8,623 nucleotides of DNA from Candidatus Desantisiibacteriota bacterium (GTDB lineage Bacteria; JACRDZ01). The stretch lies in the NCBI GenBank assembly GCA_016209155.1, contig JACQWU010000272.1, positions 1 to 8,623 on the forward strand, written 5' to 3'. A program made the translations under genes and the position numbers. Below the pieces are notes generated by a model, which was not told the DNA's origin, ran no database searches, and saw only the letters and a program-made list of their open reading frames with translations. Shown one piece after another: positions 1 through 8,623 of this stretch; the first letter of the stretch is position 1, and every line of letters begins with the position of its first letter.

Positions 1-39
1 TAAACCGCTTCACAATTTTATAAAGCAGATTAGATTTAT
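1..39. repeat. 39-bp direct repeat, copy 1
   Basis: This is identical over 39 bases to 927-965. It may extend left of the window. On the minus strand both copies encode KSNLLYKIVKRF in the same hsdM frame. Position 40 onward is unrelated to position 966 onward, so this is the join of a 926-bp tandem duplication or an assembly junction. Confidence 0.9.
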
Positions 40-892
40 TAATATTAACAAAAGCTGTTTCGTTTTCAAGCCTCTGGATTCTTTCTTTCGATGCCTGGAA
101 ATTAAGCTTGAGCGGCCGCTCCACTGTTACGCGCGTATAGCCAAAATATTCATTATCAAATATTTTACAAAACTCGCCCTGTTTAAATGAACCATAAATT
201 TTTGTAATCTCGGAAATATGTTCATCACTAATCTCATTACGTTTATTGCCAAGGCTTCGCGGCATTTTATTAAAAAAACTCACAGCATTAACAAACTGAA
301 TTTTGCCTTTGCGTTCTTTCTCTTTGCGGTTAGTAACAATCCACACATAGGTCGAAATACCGGTATTATAAAAAAGTTGATCCGGCATAGCAATAATCGC
401 CTCAAGCATATCCTTTTCAATTATCCATTTTCTGATTTCGCTTTCACCGCTGCCTGCTCCGCCGGAAAAAAGAGGCGAACCGTTAAACACGATTCCGATA
501 CGCGCCCCGCCGTTTTCAGGCCTCATCTTGGAAATCATATGCTGCAAAAACAAAAACGAACCGTCACTGATGCGCGGAAGCCCGGCGCCAAACCGCCCGG
601 CAAAACCAAGCTGTTCATGTTCTTTGGTTATTTCCTCTTCAATCTTTTTCCACTCCACGCCAAAAGGCTGATTACTCAACATATAATCATATTTTTCATC
701 TTTAAGCCCATCCTGCGTGAATGAATTGCCGAATTTGATATAATCCGTATTTTGCCCCTTGATAAGCATATCGGAATTGCAGATCGCGTATGACTCAGGA
801 TTTAATTCCTGCCCAAACACCCGAAGATCAGCATCGGGATTAAGTTCACGCAGATATTCTTCAGCAATAGAAAGCATACCGCCGGTTCCGCA
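1..892 (-). pseudogene. hsdM: Type I R-M methyltransferase HsdM, 3' remnant (catalytic part)
   Basis: This frame is open from the left window edge to about 892 and was found by translating the minus strand; it has no stop inside the window. It encodes the catalytic N6-adenine methylase domain of HsdM, the modification subunit that methylates adenine together with the HsdS specificity subunit. Recognisable blocks in order are CGTGGM (the end of SAM-binding motif I), VFGQELNPESYAIC, a motif IV region, DGSFLFLQHMISKM, FNGSPLFSGGAGSGES, MPDQLFYNTGISTYVWIVTN and the typical C-terminal YTRVTVERPLKLNFQAS. Motif IV reads SNQPFG where the family has NPPF or NPPY, so a catalytic residue is altered. The part before CGTGGM is missing, and the 5' piece at 802-1350 lies in another frame. 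The first ATG is at 877, without a convincing ribosome site. After the residues TAFVNI the frame enters a 39-bp copy of sequence from the gene's own middle. No hsdS or hsdR is in view. Confidence 0.85.
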
Positions 893-1350
893 TTAGGCAC
901 CTTATCAGGATGAAGGTCAATTTCACTAAACCGCTTCACAATTTTATAAAGCAGATTAGATTTATCAAGACGTTCAATGTGATCTGGAAAATTAAAATGC
1001 TCAAGGATATCGCGGGCATTCTTAGAAAAACCGTTGATATAATTACGCAGATTGGAAGCGATATCATTCGTGTCAGCCGCAAGTTTTTGAAAATCAAATT
1101 TACTTTTATTGTAAAAGGATAGTTTCGCTTTTCGTTTTAAAACTTCTTCAGCCGCATCAGGAGATAAACCTTTAACTTTTGGAAGGTGTTTAAAAATAAT
1201 ATTTTTGGTTGGCTCAAGCACACAATCAAGACGGCGTAAAACCGTAAGAGGTAAAATGACCCTCCCATATTCCGACTGCTTGTAATCCCCACGCAAAAGG
1301 TAAGCAATACTCCAGATAAAATTCGCTTTTTCTTTAAAGTTATTTACCAG
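802..1350 (-). pseudogene. hsdM: Type I R-M methyltransferase HsdM, 5' remnant (N-terminal domain)
   Basis: This is the N-terminal helical domain of HsdM, with LRGDYKQSEYGRVILP, TVLRRLDCVLEPTK, KSNLLYKIVKRFSEIDLHP and then NAE. The family normally continues NAE-MGY-FEELIR and about 60 more residues before the SAM motif DPACGTGG. Here NAE is followed at once, one frame off, by the DNA for CGTGG, and this frame then runs through 27 unrelated residues to a TAA at 802-804. Family-like residues (VNNFKEKANFIWS) continue upstream of the first allowable start, a TTG at 1296. They reach back to a CTG at 1348-1350 with AAGGGG six bases before it, so the original start was probably ATG at that place. 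An in-frame TAA lies just upstream. The piece is divergent from the ATPase at 1540, with 189 bp between them. Decay is well supported; whether any product is made is unknown. Confidence 0.85.
927..965. repeat. 39-bp direct repeat, copy 2 (native context)
   Basis: This is the second copy of the 39-bp repeat. It lies in its expected place in the HsdM N-terminal domain, between ERLD and SEIDLHP, so it is the original and the copy at 1-39 is the displaced one. Confidence 0.9.
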
Positions 1351-1362: not shown

Positions 1363-1443
1363 TTTTAATTATGTAAAATCAAAATATGTATTGTTTATTT
1401 AACCACAAAAATTGTAAAAAAGTCAATAAAGAAAAAAATAAAT

Positions 1444-1519
1444 GTATTGCATTATAAATTAAATATCTATATAATAGTAATGCAATACTAATAATCATTC
1501 ATAACAGTAGTAATGCAAT
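1444..1519 (+). promoter_or_regulatory. Three phased operator-like sites over the ATPase promoter
   Basis: Site 1 GTATTGCATTA (1444-1454) is an exact inverted repeat of site 2 TAATGCAATAC (1478-1488). Site 3, TAGTAATGCAAT (1508-1519), is a direct 12-base repeat of 1475-1486. The central TGCA tetramers are at 1448, 1481 and 1514, exactly 33 bp apart, about three helical turns. Site 1 covers the -35 box, site 2 the likely transcription start, and site 3 sits between start and ribosome site. This is a typical layout for repression or autoregulation. The binding protein is not known; the ATPase itself has a winged-helix-like segment. Confidence 0.6.
1447..1475 (+). promoter_or_regulatory. Sigma-70-type promoter of the DUF4143 ATPase gene
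   Basis: The -35 box TTGCAT (1447-1452) and a perfect -10 box TATAAT (1470-1475) are separated by exactly 17 bases. Transcription would start near 1482, giving a leader of about 58 bases before the ATG at 1540. Repeated TGCA-centred sites overlap the -35 box and the predicted start. Confidence 0.7.
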
Positions 1520-1539
1520 CCAATAAAAAAGGAATTTAT

Positions 1540-2775
1540 ATGTTAGAAGATTTATTCAGGCTCAGTCAGAATTTTATTAGAATATATAAAAGAGAATATA
1601 TAAGATACTTTTTAAAAGTTAATCTATTGAGTAATCGGTTTTCCATAATAATTGGGCAGAGAGGTGTTGGAAAAACCACAGCAATGATCCAGTATATTCT
1701 ATCTTCGTATAATAATGATGTTTTTACAGATAAAGCTATCTATATACAAGCAGACCATTTTCTTGTCGGGAAATACTCACTTTATGAAATAGCGGAGCAG
1801 TTTTATAACCATGGAGGAGAGCTTTTATGTCTGGATGAAATCCATAAATATTCTAACTGGTCTAAAGAATTAAAAAGTATTAATGACACATTTCCTAAAT
1901 TAAAAATAATAGCATCCGGCAGTTCAGCTTTGGAAATATACAAAGGGACTCATGATCTTAGCAGGCGTGCTGTTATTTTAAGAATGTTTGGTTTGTCTTT
2001 TAAAGAGTTTATAGAAATTACTACTGAAAATAAATTGGAAAGGTATGATATTGAAGAAATAATCAAAAATCATCAGAAGATATCAAATAATATTGTGAAT
2101 ATAGTTGAAAAAAAGGGGGGGAAAATTCTTGTATTATTCAAAGAATATCTGGAATATGGCTATTATCCTTATTTTAATGAATTTGCTGATAAAAATATTT
2201 TTCGTTTAACATTAGAACAAAACATACATACTACACTCGAAAGTGATTTGATACTTATACATCCTTCATTAAGTGGTAATAGTATTAAAAAAATAAAGAG
2301 CTTATTATCTATTATAGCGTCATCGGTTCCTTTTACTCCTGATTTAAAAAAGTTAAAAACAATTCTTGATATTGGAGATGAAAGAACCTTAAAAATTTAT
2401 TTAAAATATATGGAAGATGCAGGGATAATAATGAGTATTTATAAAGGCAAAGGCGGTTTAAAAGAATTAGAAAAACCCGAAAAAATTTATCTTAATAATA
2501 CGAATTTAATTTATGCTATAACAGATCATAAAACTGCAAATATAGGAAATATCAGAGAAACTTTTTTTCTAAATATGTTAGATACTTTTCACAAAGCTTC
2601 AATACCATTGAAAGGTGATTTCCTTATTGATAATAAAAATATCTTTGAAATTGGCGGAAAAAACAAAACCTTTGAACAGGTCAAAGATCTTGAAAACGCG
2701 TTTTTAGCTTTAGATGATATAGAAATTGGTTTTGGAAATAAAATTCCCTTATGGCTGTTTGGATTTTTGTATTAA
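1540..2775 (+). CDS. AAA family ATPase with DUF4143-type C-terminal domain
   Basis: The product is 411 residues, predicted cytoplasmic, of the AAA_14/DUF4143 class (COG1373-like). These ATPases are common accessory genes in anaerobes, and their role is not established. Walker A is GQRGVGKTT (residues 39-47), Walker B is LLCLDE (95-100), and a sensor-like IIASGSSALEI follows. A winged-helix-like segment lies near residues 250-305 (LKKLKTILDIGDERTLKIYL). Near the end, D360 and EIGGK (370-374) resemble the metal-binding core of a PD-(D/E)xK nuclease fold, and the protein closes with the family signature GNKIPLWLFGFLY. I chose the ATG at 1540 because AAGGA lies six bases before it. The in-frame ATG at 1513 has no ribosome site and falls inside an operator repeat. 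The gene is far richer in A+T than hsdM or leuA, which suggests separate acquisition. An A7G7 run at 2108-2121 could slip. The family call is firm; the function is unknown. Confidence 0.88.
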   Translation: MLEDLFRLSQNFIRIYKREYIRYFLKVNLLSNRFSIIIGQRGVGKTTAMIQYILSSYNNDVFTDKAIYIQADHFLVGKYSLYEIAEQFYNHGGELLCLDEIHKYSNWSKELKSINDTFPKLKIIASGSSALEIYKGTHDLSRRAVILRMFGLSFKEFIEITTENKLERYDIEEIIKNHQKISNNIVNIVEKKGGKILVLFKEYLEYGYYPYFNEFADKNIFRLTLEQNIHTTLESDLILIHPSLSGNSIKKIKSLLSIIASSVPFTPDLKKLKTILDIGDERTLKIYLKYMEDAGIIMSIYKGKGGLKELEKPEKIYLNNTNLIYAITDHKTANIGNIRETFFLNMLDTFHKASIPLKGDFLIDNKNIFEIGGKNKTFEQVKDLENAFLALDDIEIGFGNKIPLWLFGFLY

Positions 2776-4617: not shown

Positions 4618-4637
4618 TTTGATAATTCAGGCGGGTA

Positions 4638-4682
4638 GGCTGAAGGTGGAAGGCGATGACTAATATCCTTCAGCCTTCAGCC
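4638..4682. repeat. Inverted repeat of GGCTGAA heptamers between leuA and leuC
   Basis: The left arm (4638-4653, GGCTGAAGGTGGAAGG) pairs with the right arm (4667-4682, CCTTCAGCCTTCAGCC) at 14 of 16 positions around a 13-base loop. The right arm is two copies of a 7-base unit. No T-run follows, so it is not a standard terminator; it could act as a cruciform or an mRNA processing or stability hairpin. Confidence 0.75.
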
Positions 4683-4713
4683 GATACACCTAAATATTTG
4701 AAAGGGAAAAACA

Positions 4714-5976
4714 ATGGGAATGACTATTACTGAAAAAATTCTGGCGGCGCATGCCAAAAAGAAAAAAGTTGAACCGGGGGAACTCATCATTGCGAACATT
4801 GATATTGCTCTGGGAAATGACATTACTGCACCGCTCGCTATTCAGGAATTTGAAAGTCTTGGATTAAAAAAAGTATTTAATCCGGGGAGAATCTGTCTTG
4901 TTCCGGATCATTTTACCCCAAATAAAGACATAAAATCAGCGGAGCAGGTCAAAATTTTGCGTGATTTTGCTAAAAAATATAAAATTAAAAATTATTTTGA
5001 AATTGGACAGATGGGAGTTGAGCATGCTCTGTTACCGGAAAAAGGTATAGTATGTCCGGGAGACCTGATTATAGGCGCGGATTCTCATACATGCACTTAT
5101 GGCGCGCTTGGAGCTTTTTCAACCGGAGTCGGAAGTACTGACCTTGCATCTGTTATGGCAATAGGAAAACTATGGTTTAAGGTACCGGAATCTATTAAAT
5201 TTGTTTATAAAGGTAAACTGCGTAAGTGGGTATCAGGTAAGGATTTAATTTTATACACCATAGGACTTATCGGTGTTGATGGGGCTTTATATCAATCAAT
5301 GGAATTTACAGGTCCTGTTATTGAGAAGCTATCAATGGATAACCGTTTTAGTATGGCGAATATGGCTATTGAAGCAGGAGCAAAAAATGGAATATTTATT
5401 CCTGATGATATTACTCTTGAATATATCAAAAATCGTGTTCAAAGACCGTATAAATTTTACAATAGCGATAAAGACGCAAAATATTCTAAAATCCATGAAA
5501 TAGATGTAAATAATATTGAACCGCAGGTGGCATTTCCTCATCTGCCTGAAAACGCAAAAGGTGTCAGCAAAGCAGGAAAAATTTCTCTTGATCAGGTTGT
5601 TATAGGTTCATGTACAAACGGCAGAATGGAAGATTTGCGGATTGCTGCAAAAATATTGAAAAATCGTAAGGTGAGTTCCAATCTCAGGCTTATTGTAATT
5701 CCTGCAACACAAAATATTTATATGCAAGCCATGAAAGAGGGGCTTATTGAAATTTTTATAAATGCAGGAGCGGCTGTCAGCACTCCAACATGCGGGCCAT
5801 GTCTTGGCGGACATATGGGTATTCTTGCCAAAGGAGAAAAAGCTCTTGCAACCACCAATCGTAATTTTGTAGGAAGAATGGGAAGTCCTGAAAGCGAAGT
5901 TTACCTTGCAGGTCCTGCAATTGCTGCAGCATCGGCTATTTTAGGCAGAATAAGCAGTCCGGAGGATTTAACATAA
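4714..5976 (+). CDS. leuC: 3-isopropylmalate dehydratase large subunit
   Basis: LeuC is the [4Fe-4S] catalytic subunit that, with LeuD, isomerises 2-isopropylmalate to 3-isopropylmalate through a dehydrated intermediate. The product is 420 residues, the length of the shorter, archaeal-like LeuC2/HacA branch of the aconitase family and not the roughly 465-residue E. coli type. Visible motifs are [20 protein letters not shown] (about 121-140), GSCTNGR with Cys300, and [11 protein letters not shown] with Cys360 and Cys363; these three cysteines are the expected cluster ligands. [20 protein letters not shown] is the usual C-terminal block. ATG 4714 is preceded by AAAGGGA at a spacing of six; the ATG at 4720 is an alternative. 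It is co-oriented with leuA and leuD, and separated from each by gaps filled with heptamer hairpins. Homoaconitase is a possible alternative by sequence alone, but the adjacent leuA favours leucine synthesis. Confidence 0.95.
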
Positions 5977-5980
5977 TAAC

Positions 5981-6101
5981 AAGCAATGAGCAATGAGCAA
6001 TGAGCAATGAGTGATGAGTGATGAGCAAGGAGTGATGAGCAAGGAGTGATGAGTTGAAAAGATATTTTAACTCATTGCTCATTGCTAATTGCTCATTGCT
6101 T
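5981..6101. repeat. Heptamer tandem repeat and long inverted repeat between leuC and leuD
   Basis: The left side (5981 to about 6055) is a tandem array of 7-base units: GAGCAAT first, then variants GAGTGAT and GAGCAAG. The right arm (6068-6101) is the reverse complement of 5981-6014 at 32 of 34 positions. The loop of 53 bases contains further units. It ends six bases before the leuD ribosome site. The stem could form a large cruciform or mRNA hairpin; the pattern resembles heptameric short tandem repeats known from other bacteria. Confidence 0.88.
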
Positions 6102-6120
6102 CTTTTAAAAGGAGAAAAAC

Positions 6121-8217: not shown

Positions 8218-8623
8218 ATGGAAAAAAATTTTAATAATAATCAGGACGACAAAATAGATGAACAAAATGAAAAAACAACTGATGATGGGACTCAAACTGA
8301 TGCTGAATTAATAATTGAAAATAAAGAGGACATCATATTGCAAAATGTATCCGAAGCTGAAACACAATCTGCTGAAATAAGTCCTAATTCTGATATCCCT
8401 TTATCAAACGATACAGAGAATAAGCCGGAAACAATTCCCTTATCTCTTAAAGAAATTAAAAGAATTGTCGAAGCTCTTCTTTTTGTATCAGATAAACCAT
8501 TAACTGTTCAAAAAATAAAAAATACTATTGATGAAGTTTCCGATACAAGTACAATCTAAGCAATTATAACTGAATTAAATGATGAATATACAAAAGAGGA
8601 AAGAAGTTTTCATATTATAGAAA
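8218..8623 (+). CDS. scpB: Segregation and condensation protein B, partial, interrupted by an in-frame TAA
   Basis: ScpB dimers bind the ScpA kleisin and regulate the SMC complex. ATG 8218 follows AGAGGA at seven bases. The first 75 or so residues are an acidic, Asn/Asp/Glu/Gln-rich, probably disordered extension that ordinary ScpB proteins lack. The conserved part begins at LSLKEIKRIVEALLFVSDKP, the first winged-helix domain. After DTSTI a TAA occurs at 8557-8559, giving a 113-residue product. The same frame then continues without a break to the window end with AIITELNDEYTKEERSFHII, which is normal ScpB sequence, so the stop is internal to the gene. One base change (for example CAA or AAA to TAA) would explain it. 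A sequencing or consensus error is a serious alternative, since scpA is intact. The 3' part of the gene lies beyond the window. Confidence 0.85.

What the first reader, a model, noticed from the sequence alone, without database searches (positions are those of the whole stretch)
1444..1519. Three TGCA-centred operator sites exactly 33 bp apart over a strong promoter
TTGCAT-N17-TATAAT is overlaid by GTATTGCATTA at the -35 box, its exact inverted copy at the likely start site, and a third copy in the leader. The centres are 33 and 33 bp apart, so all lie on the same helix face. Such phasing suggests cooperative binding or looping. The downstream ATPase contains a winged-helix-like segment, so autoregulation is possible. 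I know of no described operator for this ATPase family.
Basis: partly seen in the sequence, partly recalled or inferred. Interest (0 to 1): 0.65.

Follow-up and report, generated by a model that had tools for sequence, protein, structure and literature searches.

The report
Self-controlling ATPase gene with phased operators
A widespread but uncharacterised bacterial ATPase gene carries two or three matching DNA-binding sites spaced about 33 base pairs apart over its own promoter, and comparison of many relatives suggests that the ATPase itself binds these sites to control its own production, which would be a first clue to how one of the commonest candidate anti-virus proteins is regulated.

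Summary
Three sites (16-bp dyads centred at 1449.5, 1482.5 and 1515.5) lie exactly 33 bp apart over a promoter (TTGCAT-N17-TATAAT). The array is the only 33-bp-spaced one found in its genome. Orthologues 50-84% identical, from many phyla, carry the same dyad (consensus TAGTATTGCAATACTA), usually as a 32/33-bp pair. More distant homologues carry different dyads at the same spacing. The best dyad pair was 32/33 bp apart in 57 of 85 ATPase upstream regions, against 29 of 388 for neighbouring genes (Fisher p 9e-31). A hold-out set of plasmid homologues agreed (6 of 16, p 7e-5).

The sites bracket the promoter, and extra sites keep the register. No neighbouring gene is conserved. In most tests the protein segment best tracking operator sequence is the recognition helix of the ATPase's own winged helix (residues 279-290; AlphaFold helix 281-293).

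Best explanation: the AAA_14 ATPase is an autorepressor binding as cooperative dimers. Binding and repression are inferred; the architecture is shown. The family matches PADLOC's unvalidated defence candidate PDC-S01; I found no described operator for it. 'Strong promoter' is overstated (-35 matches 3 of 6), and DUF4143 is below threshold for this protein.

The parts
1442..1457 (.). operator dyad 1 (ATGTATTGCATTATAA), contains the -35 hexamer
   Evidence: 5/8 dyad symmetry; equivalent dyad in L034 (TTGCATTGCAATACTA)
1447..1452 (+). -35 element TTGCAT (3 of 6 to TTGACA)
   Evidence: same offset inside site 1 in orthologues
1470..1475 (+). -10 element TATAAT, 17 bp after the -35
   Evidence: TATAAT match peaks at this offset in 21 homologues
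1475..1490 (.). operator dyad 2 (TAGTAATGCAATACTA), over the expected transcription start (about 1482)
1508..1523 (.). operator dyad 3 (TAGTAATGCAATCCAA), in the leader
   Evidence: third site also in L034
1529..1533 (+). ribosome-binding site AAGGA
   Evidence: sequence; inference
1540..2775 (+). AAA_14 ATPase, 411 aa (start at 1540 by homology, not the ATG at 1513 that lies inside site 3)
1633..2010 (+). AAA_14 ATP-binding domain (residues 32-157)
   Evidence: 88 bits against cut-off 27
2257..2529 (+). winged-helix domain (residues 240-330)
   Evidence: AlphaFold; nearest folds Rrf2/CymR, ArsR, MarR repressors
2380..2418 (+). recognition helix (residues 281-293); operator-covarying segment is residues 279-290
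2530..2772 (+). C-terminal domain (residues 331-411), possibly PD-(D/E)XK-like; invariant D360, E370, K376
   Evidence: fold assignment from literature on PDC-S01, not tested here

Best explanation
The three sites are operators of the ATPase gene, and the ATPase is their own binder. Its winged-helix domain, working as dimers, sits on each 16-bp dyad. Neighbouring dimers, three helical turns apart on one face, bind cooperatively. Sites 1 and 2 cover the -35 element and the start-site region, and site 3 extends the array into the leader, so bound protein should block RNA polymerase: autorepression. ATP binding or hydrolysis, or a ligand of the AAA domain, may release the protein and raise its own expression. 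SHOWN: site geometry, its conservation, its absence at this spacing elsewhere in the genome, divergence of the site sequence between clades, lack of any conserved neighbour, a confident winged-helix fold, and covariation of the recognition helix with the operator. INFERRED: binding, dimers and cooperativity, repression rather than activation, and the ATP-linked switch.
For: 1) The same dyad, usually as a 32/33-bp pair, lies upstream of orthologues 50-84% identical in Nitrospirae, Deltaproteobacteria, Saganbacteria, Campylobacterota and Spirochaetes. 2) In 85 homologous loci the best dyad pair is at 32/33 bp in 57, against 29/388 for neighbouring genes, p 9e-31; 56/85 against about 4% in shuffles; 54/85 individually significant at p<=0.02. 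3) Hold-out plasmid homologues: 6/16, p 7e-5. 4) Different clades use different dyads at the same spacing, e.g. GTTGTTTGTAAACAAC, GTCGTTTGTATTCGAC, GTAAATTGTAATTTAC. 5) No gene family is shared by more than 3 of 85 neighbourhoods, so nothing but the ATPase travels with the sites. 6) Controlling for the rest of the protein, operator distance tracks residues 279-290 best of about 200 windows, rank 1 in several subsets; the helix lies at 281-293 in the model. 7) Natural test: L149 is only 40-43% identical to the clade but keeps GDERTLK and the TAGTATTGCAATCCTA operator; recognition-helix identity 53-76%. 8) Third sites fall at 32/33 bp in 11 of 25 cases and at 65 in 2. 9) The winged helix resembles palindrome-binding repressors.
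Against: No binding data exist. Without the TAGTATTG-type loci the recognition helix is not the top window (rank 25-59 of about 400), and among very distant pairs windows near residues 120-125 score slightly higher. About a third of the 85 loci show no clear 32/33-bp pair. The nifJ-linked Bacteroidales group lacks it, and the wider DUF4143 family shows it only in part (20/93). The partial correlations are modest (0.2-0.6) and the loci share ancestry.
Confidence: 0.76

Rival explanations
1. The sites are operators for a separate, host-encoded regulator that controls the ATPase gene in trans.
For: Palindromic operators usually bind dedicated regulators. No direct evidence that the ATPase binds DNA. 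Some plasmid homologues have an HTH gene nearby (L262, L264).
Against: The same site occurs with the gene in unrelated phyla with no conserved neighbour. The sites are not scattered at other genes of the host genome. Operator sequence follows the ATPase's own recognition helix.
Confidence: 0.13
2. The 33-bp spacing is only promoter geometry: one dyad at the -35/-33 element, one at the start region, with no cooperative contact between bound proteins.
For: In both sigma-70-type and Bacteroidota-type promoters the two dyads sit next to the two promoter elements.
Against: Third sites, which promoter geometry does not require, also lie at 32/33 or 65 bp. The window and L034 carry a third dyad in register.
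Confidence: 0.3
3. The ATPase activates, rather than represses, its own promoter, for example as an AAA+ activator reporting its ATP state.
For: The protein has an intact Walker A motif (GQRGVGKT) and an AAA domain. The weak -35 could need help.
Against: The dyads overlap the -35 and the start site, where a bound protein normally excludes RNA polymerase. The protein has no sigma-54-activator match in Pfam.
Confidence: 0.12
4. The repeats are recombination or mobile-element ends, or RNA structures, not operators.
For: The gene is clearly moved between phyla; one plasmid copy lies beside an integrase (L260).
Against: In the window no copy lies on the other side of the gene. Site 1 is upstream of the expected start and so is not transcribed. 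Position relative to promoter elements is conserved.
Confidence: 0.02
5. Chance similarity in AT-rich DNA.
For: Single TAATGCAAT sites are common (102 in the genome).
Against: Recurrence at fixed spacing across independent loci, p 9e-31 and p 7e-5.
Confidence: 0.01

Closest known systems
Dimeric winged-helix repressors (Rrf2/IscR/CymR, ArsR/SmtB, MarR)
   Same: A winged-helix domain reads a palindromic operator overlapping its own promoter; nearest folds of the isolated domain.
   Different: Those are small dedicated regulators. Here the winged helix sits between an AAA ATPase domain and a C-terminal domain in one 411-aa protein.
Archaeal AAA+/winged-helix ATPases SSO1545 (2FNA) and PABY2304 (2QEN)
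   Same: AAA domain followed by a winged helix; VIA Z 15.8 and 16.1 over about 262 residues.
   Different: I know of no operators described for these; sequence search of the PDB finds no true homologue.
PADLOC PDC-S01 (single-gene phage defence candidate; ATPase fused to a PD-(D/E)XK-type domain)
   Same: The window protein matches seven PDC-S01 models, best E 2e-28. PMC12988326 describes PDC-S01 as the fourth most common defence across prokaryotes, with experimental validation pending for most such candidates.
   Different: PADLOC's own thresholds were not available. Defence activity and operator control are not described in the texts read.
Cdc6/Orc1 initiators
   Same: AAA plus winged-helix architecture binding DNA; best Foldseek E 5e-8.
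   Different: The sites here are promoter operators upstream of one gene, with no sign of an origin.
BrxR-type WYL regulators of defence islands
   Same: Transcriptional regulators linked to phage defence genes (title and abstract only, PMC9122601).
   Different: Separate regulator genes; here the candidate effector would regulate itself.

Membership tests
Pfam AAA_14 (PF13173) | score over the curated cut-off of 27 bits | tested here: met
   88 bits, E 7e-25
Pfam DUF4143 (PF13635) | score over the curated cut-off of 28.1 bits | tested here: not met
   No match for the window protein even at E 5; homologues 19.7-26.3 bits, below cut-off
PADLOC PDC-S01 | match to the PDC-S01 models | tested here: inconclusive
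   Best E 2e-28, 97 bits, over residues 14-343; PADLOC's acceptance thresholds were not available
PADLOC PDC-S01 | protection against phage | not testable with these tools
   needs an infection assay
Autoregulatory winged-helix repressor | dyad operators overlapping the gene's own promoter | tested here: met
Autoregulatory winged-helix repressor | winged-helix fold | tested here: met
   H246-261, H269-276, H281-293, E297-300, E315-318 in a model of mean pLDDT 90; repressor folds nearest to the domain alone, at middling Z about 8
Autoregulatory winged-helix repressor | operator specificity set by the protein's recognition helix | tested here: inconclusive
   top window in the whole set and several subsets, not in all subsets
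Autoregulatory winged-helix repressor | protein binds the operator and represses | not testable with these tools
   needs EMSA or footprint and a reporter assay

The most novel reading that the evidence does not exclude
AAA_14/PDC-S01-type ATPases are one-gene sensor, repressor and effector systems. The same protein represses itself through a fast-diverging, clade-specific operator array in 33-bp register and is released when invading DNA or another trigger engages its ATPase. The private operator lets each copy work on its own in new hosts and beside its many paralogues without cross-talk.
Probability: 0.2. Interest if true: 0.88.

Novelty: new variant of a known kind. Interest (0 to 1): 0.7.

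Why it matters
This protein family is among the most frequent candidate anti-phage genes in prokaryotes (PMC12988326), yet no function or regulation for it came up in the searches made. A conserved, self-contained operator gives a direct handle: a defined DNA ligand for biochemistry, a predicted recognition helix to mutate, and an explanation of how a lone gene can move between phyla and still be controlled. It also gives a protein family with many natural operator and recognition-helix pairs, useful for studying how repressor specificity evolves and how paralogues avoid cross-talk (the window's genome holds about 25 AAA_14 matches, 19 of them over the cut-off).

Tried and rejected
Chance in AT-rich DNA: rejected by recurrence. 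Scattered regulon sites of a global regulator: the other 1-mismatch dyads are single and inside ORFs, and the exact-spacing pair occurs only at this promoter. A co-travelling regulator gene: no neighbour family in more than 3 of 85 loci. PDB homologue by sequence: none credible. NCBIfam and PHROGs gave no match for the window protein. Literature: DUF4143 in one paper, COG1373 in seven papers, once each, none of them opened, the AAA_14 word search was swamped by unrelated papers, and searches joining AAA ATPase, winged helix, palindrome and autoregulation found nothing. I looked for the Thermus gene TT_P0211 (an AAA_14/DUF4143/HTH gene, 6.6-fold up when a plasmid and TtAgo are both present, PMC4406477) but did not find it in the region fetched and did not pursue it. 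The consensus promoter scan did not report the promoter.

Full report
WHAT IS THERE. The window holds a solitary 411-aa AAA_14 ATPase gene (1540-2775, +) between a broken hsdM on the other strand and leuA-leuC-leuD. Its start is 1540, where homologues begin; the ATG at 1513 lies inside the third site. Upstream are GTATTGCATTA at 1444-1454, its exact inverted copy at 1478-1488, and TAATGCAATCC at 1511-1521. Their TGCA centres are exactly 33 and 33 bp apart. Extended to 16 bp they are imperfect dyads, ATGTATTGCATTATAA, TAGTAATGCAATACTA and TAGTAATGCAATCCAA. TTGCAT-N17-TATAAT lies at 1447-1475, so dyad 1 covers the -35, dyad 2 the expected start, dyad 3 the leader. The -35 matches the consensus at 3 of 6 positions and the promoter scan does not list it, so 'strong promoter' is overstated.

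IS IT CHANCE? Single TAATGCAAT sites are common (102 in 3.08 Mb). The 33-bp-spaced arrangement is not: a gapped search found exact-spacing pairs only at this promoter, and the three other near-perfect dyads of the genome are single and inside ORFs.

RELATIVES. The 84%-identical homologue in another family of the same phylum (L034) has three dyads at 32 and 33 bp and nearly the same distance from its ATG, with a full palindrome AGTATTGCAATACT at the third. A scan of species genomes returned 80 loci. Those 50-74% identical come from Nitrospirae, Deltaproteobacteria, Saganbacteria, Campylobacterota, Spirochaetes, Chlamydiae and Verrucomicrobiota, and most carry the TAGTATTG- or TGGGATTG-type pair just upstream of the start. 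Loci 37-46% identical mostly carry unrelated dyads, again about 33 bp apart: GTTGTTTGTAAACAAC three times (L111), CACTTTTACAAAAGTG (L108), GTCGTTTGTATTCGAC (L135), GTAAATTGTAATTTAC (L140), TTAGGTTTAAACCTAA (L114).

STATISTICS. Scoring all pairs of similar 16-bp dyads with spacing 20-60 bp, the best pair lay at 32 or 33 bp in 56 of 85 loci, against about 4% in shuffles. With 150-bp regions it was 57 of 85, against 29 of 388 upstream regions of neighbouring genes (Fisher p 9e-31). Individually 54 of 85 pass p<=0.02. A hold-out set of plasmid homologues gave 6 of 16 (p 7e-5), with two more at 34 bp; a nifJ-linked Bacteroidales group lacks the pair. In 93 wider AAA_14/DUF4143 genes, two of them members of the main family (L066 and the window gene itself), 20 are at 32/33 bp (expected 4.5, p 2e-8), so the feature extends to part of the superfamily, more weakly.

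PROMOTER GEOMETRY AND PHASE. In the TAGTATTG group the -35 sits at offset 5 and the -10 at offset 28 from the start of the upstream dyad, a 17-bp spacer. In the mainly Bacteroidota set, TTTG matches peak at offsets -3 and 30, as expected for the -33 and -7 elements (promoter types from general knowledge). So the pair brackets the promoter in both types, which alone explains much of the 33-bp spacing. But third sites, which promoter geometry does not demand, also lie at 32/33 bp in 11 of 25 candidates and at 65 bp in 2. That points to contacts between neighbouring bound proteins on one face of the helix.

WHO BINDS? Of 436 neighbouring ORFs no family is shared by more than 3 of 85 loci, so no other regulator travels with the sites across phyla. 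The ATPase has a winged helix between its AAA and C-terminal domains: helices 246-261, 269-276 and 281-293, strands 297-300 and 315-318, mean pLDDT 90. Folded alone, its nearest solved structures are bacterial repressors of the Rrf2/CymR, ArsR and MarR kinds (middling scores, Z about 8). Correlating operator distance with protein distance in sliding windows, controlling for the rest of the protein, the top window of the whole protein was residues 279-290, the recognition helix (partial r 0.30). It stayed top in a non-redundant set for windows of 1-12 residues, in the TAGTATTG group (r 0.60), and among high-scoring operators for shorter windows. It was not top when the TAGTATTG group was removed (rank 25-59 of about 400), and in the most distant pairs a window near residue 120 scored slightly higher. 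L149 is a useful case: 40-43% identical overall, yet it keeps GDERTLK in the recognition helix and the TAGTATTGCAATCCTA operator.

MECHANISM. The best reading is an autorepressor: winged-helix dimers on each dyad, cooperating along a 33-bp register, covering the -35 and start site. Geometry, conservation and covariation are shown. Binding, dimers, repression and any ATP-driven release are inferred.

COMPARISON AND NOVELTY. The closest solved whole-chain folds are the archaeal ATPases PABY2304 and SSO1545 (Z about 16). PADLOC's PDC-S01 models match with E 2e-28. PMC12988326 calls PDC-S01 the fourth most common defence across prokaryotes, describes an ATPase fused to a PD-(D/E)XK member, and says validation is pending for most such candidates. 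In Thermus, a gene annotated AAA_14, DUF4143 and HTH rose 6.6-fold when plasmid and Argonaute were both present (PMC4406477); this is only suggestive. No described operator for these ATPases was found in the library searched. I rate it a new variant of a known kind: palindromic autoregulation is familiar, but to my knowledge not in a multidomain AAA ATPase with a private, fast-diverging operator array.

Noticed in passing
window 1-1300 (-): hsdM (type I restriction methyltransferase) is split into overlapping ORFs 2-877 and 802-1296, and 42 bp at 1-42 recur at 927-968 (98%); a pseudogene or an assembly join at the contig end.
   Followed up: partly
window 8218-8622: A gene whose end reads like scpB (recalled, not tested) has an in-frame TAA at 8557-8559, with the frame continuing after it; a disabled gene or a sequence error near the contig end.
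   Followed up: no
window 5972-6104: Between leuC and leuD lies an array of GAGCAATGA-type 7-bp units facing an inverted copy (35-nt arms, 94% complementary).
   Followed up: no
window 4625-4695: Imperfect inverted repeat (29-nt arms) between leuA and leuC.
   Followed up: no
L180 upstream region: A viral-collection contig carries two different dyad pairs upstream of one ATPase: CGGATTGCATTCCG-type further out and GTTAA-TTAAC-type nearer the gene, as if a second operator set or a lost paralogue remained.
   Followed up: no
L043, L044, L048: Distant AAA_14 genes have dyads such as TTACGTATACCCGTAA twice, 32 bp apart, flanking TCTTGACA: the same layout in a different ATPase clade.
   Followed up: partly
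window genome G000: About 25 AAA_14 matches in one 3-Mb genome, 19 over the cut-off; an unusual expansion of lone ATPases.
   Followed up: no
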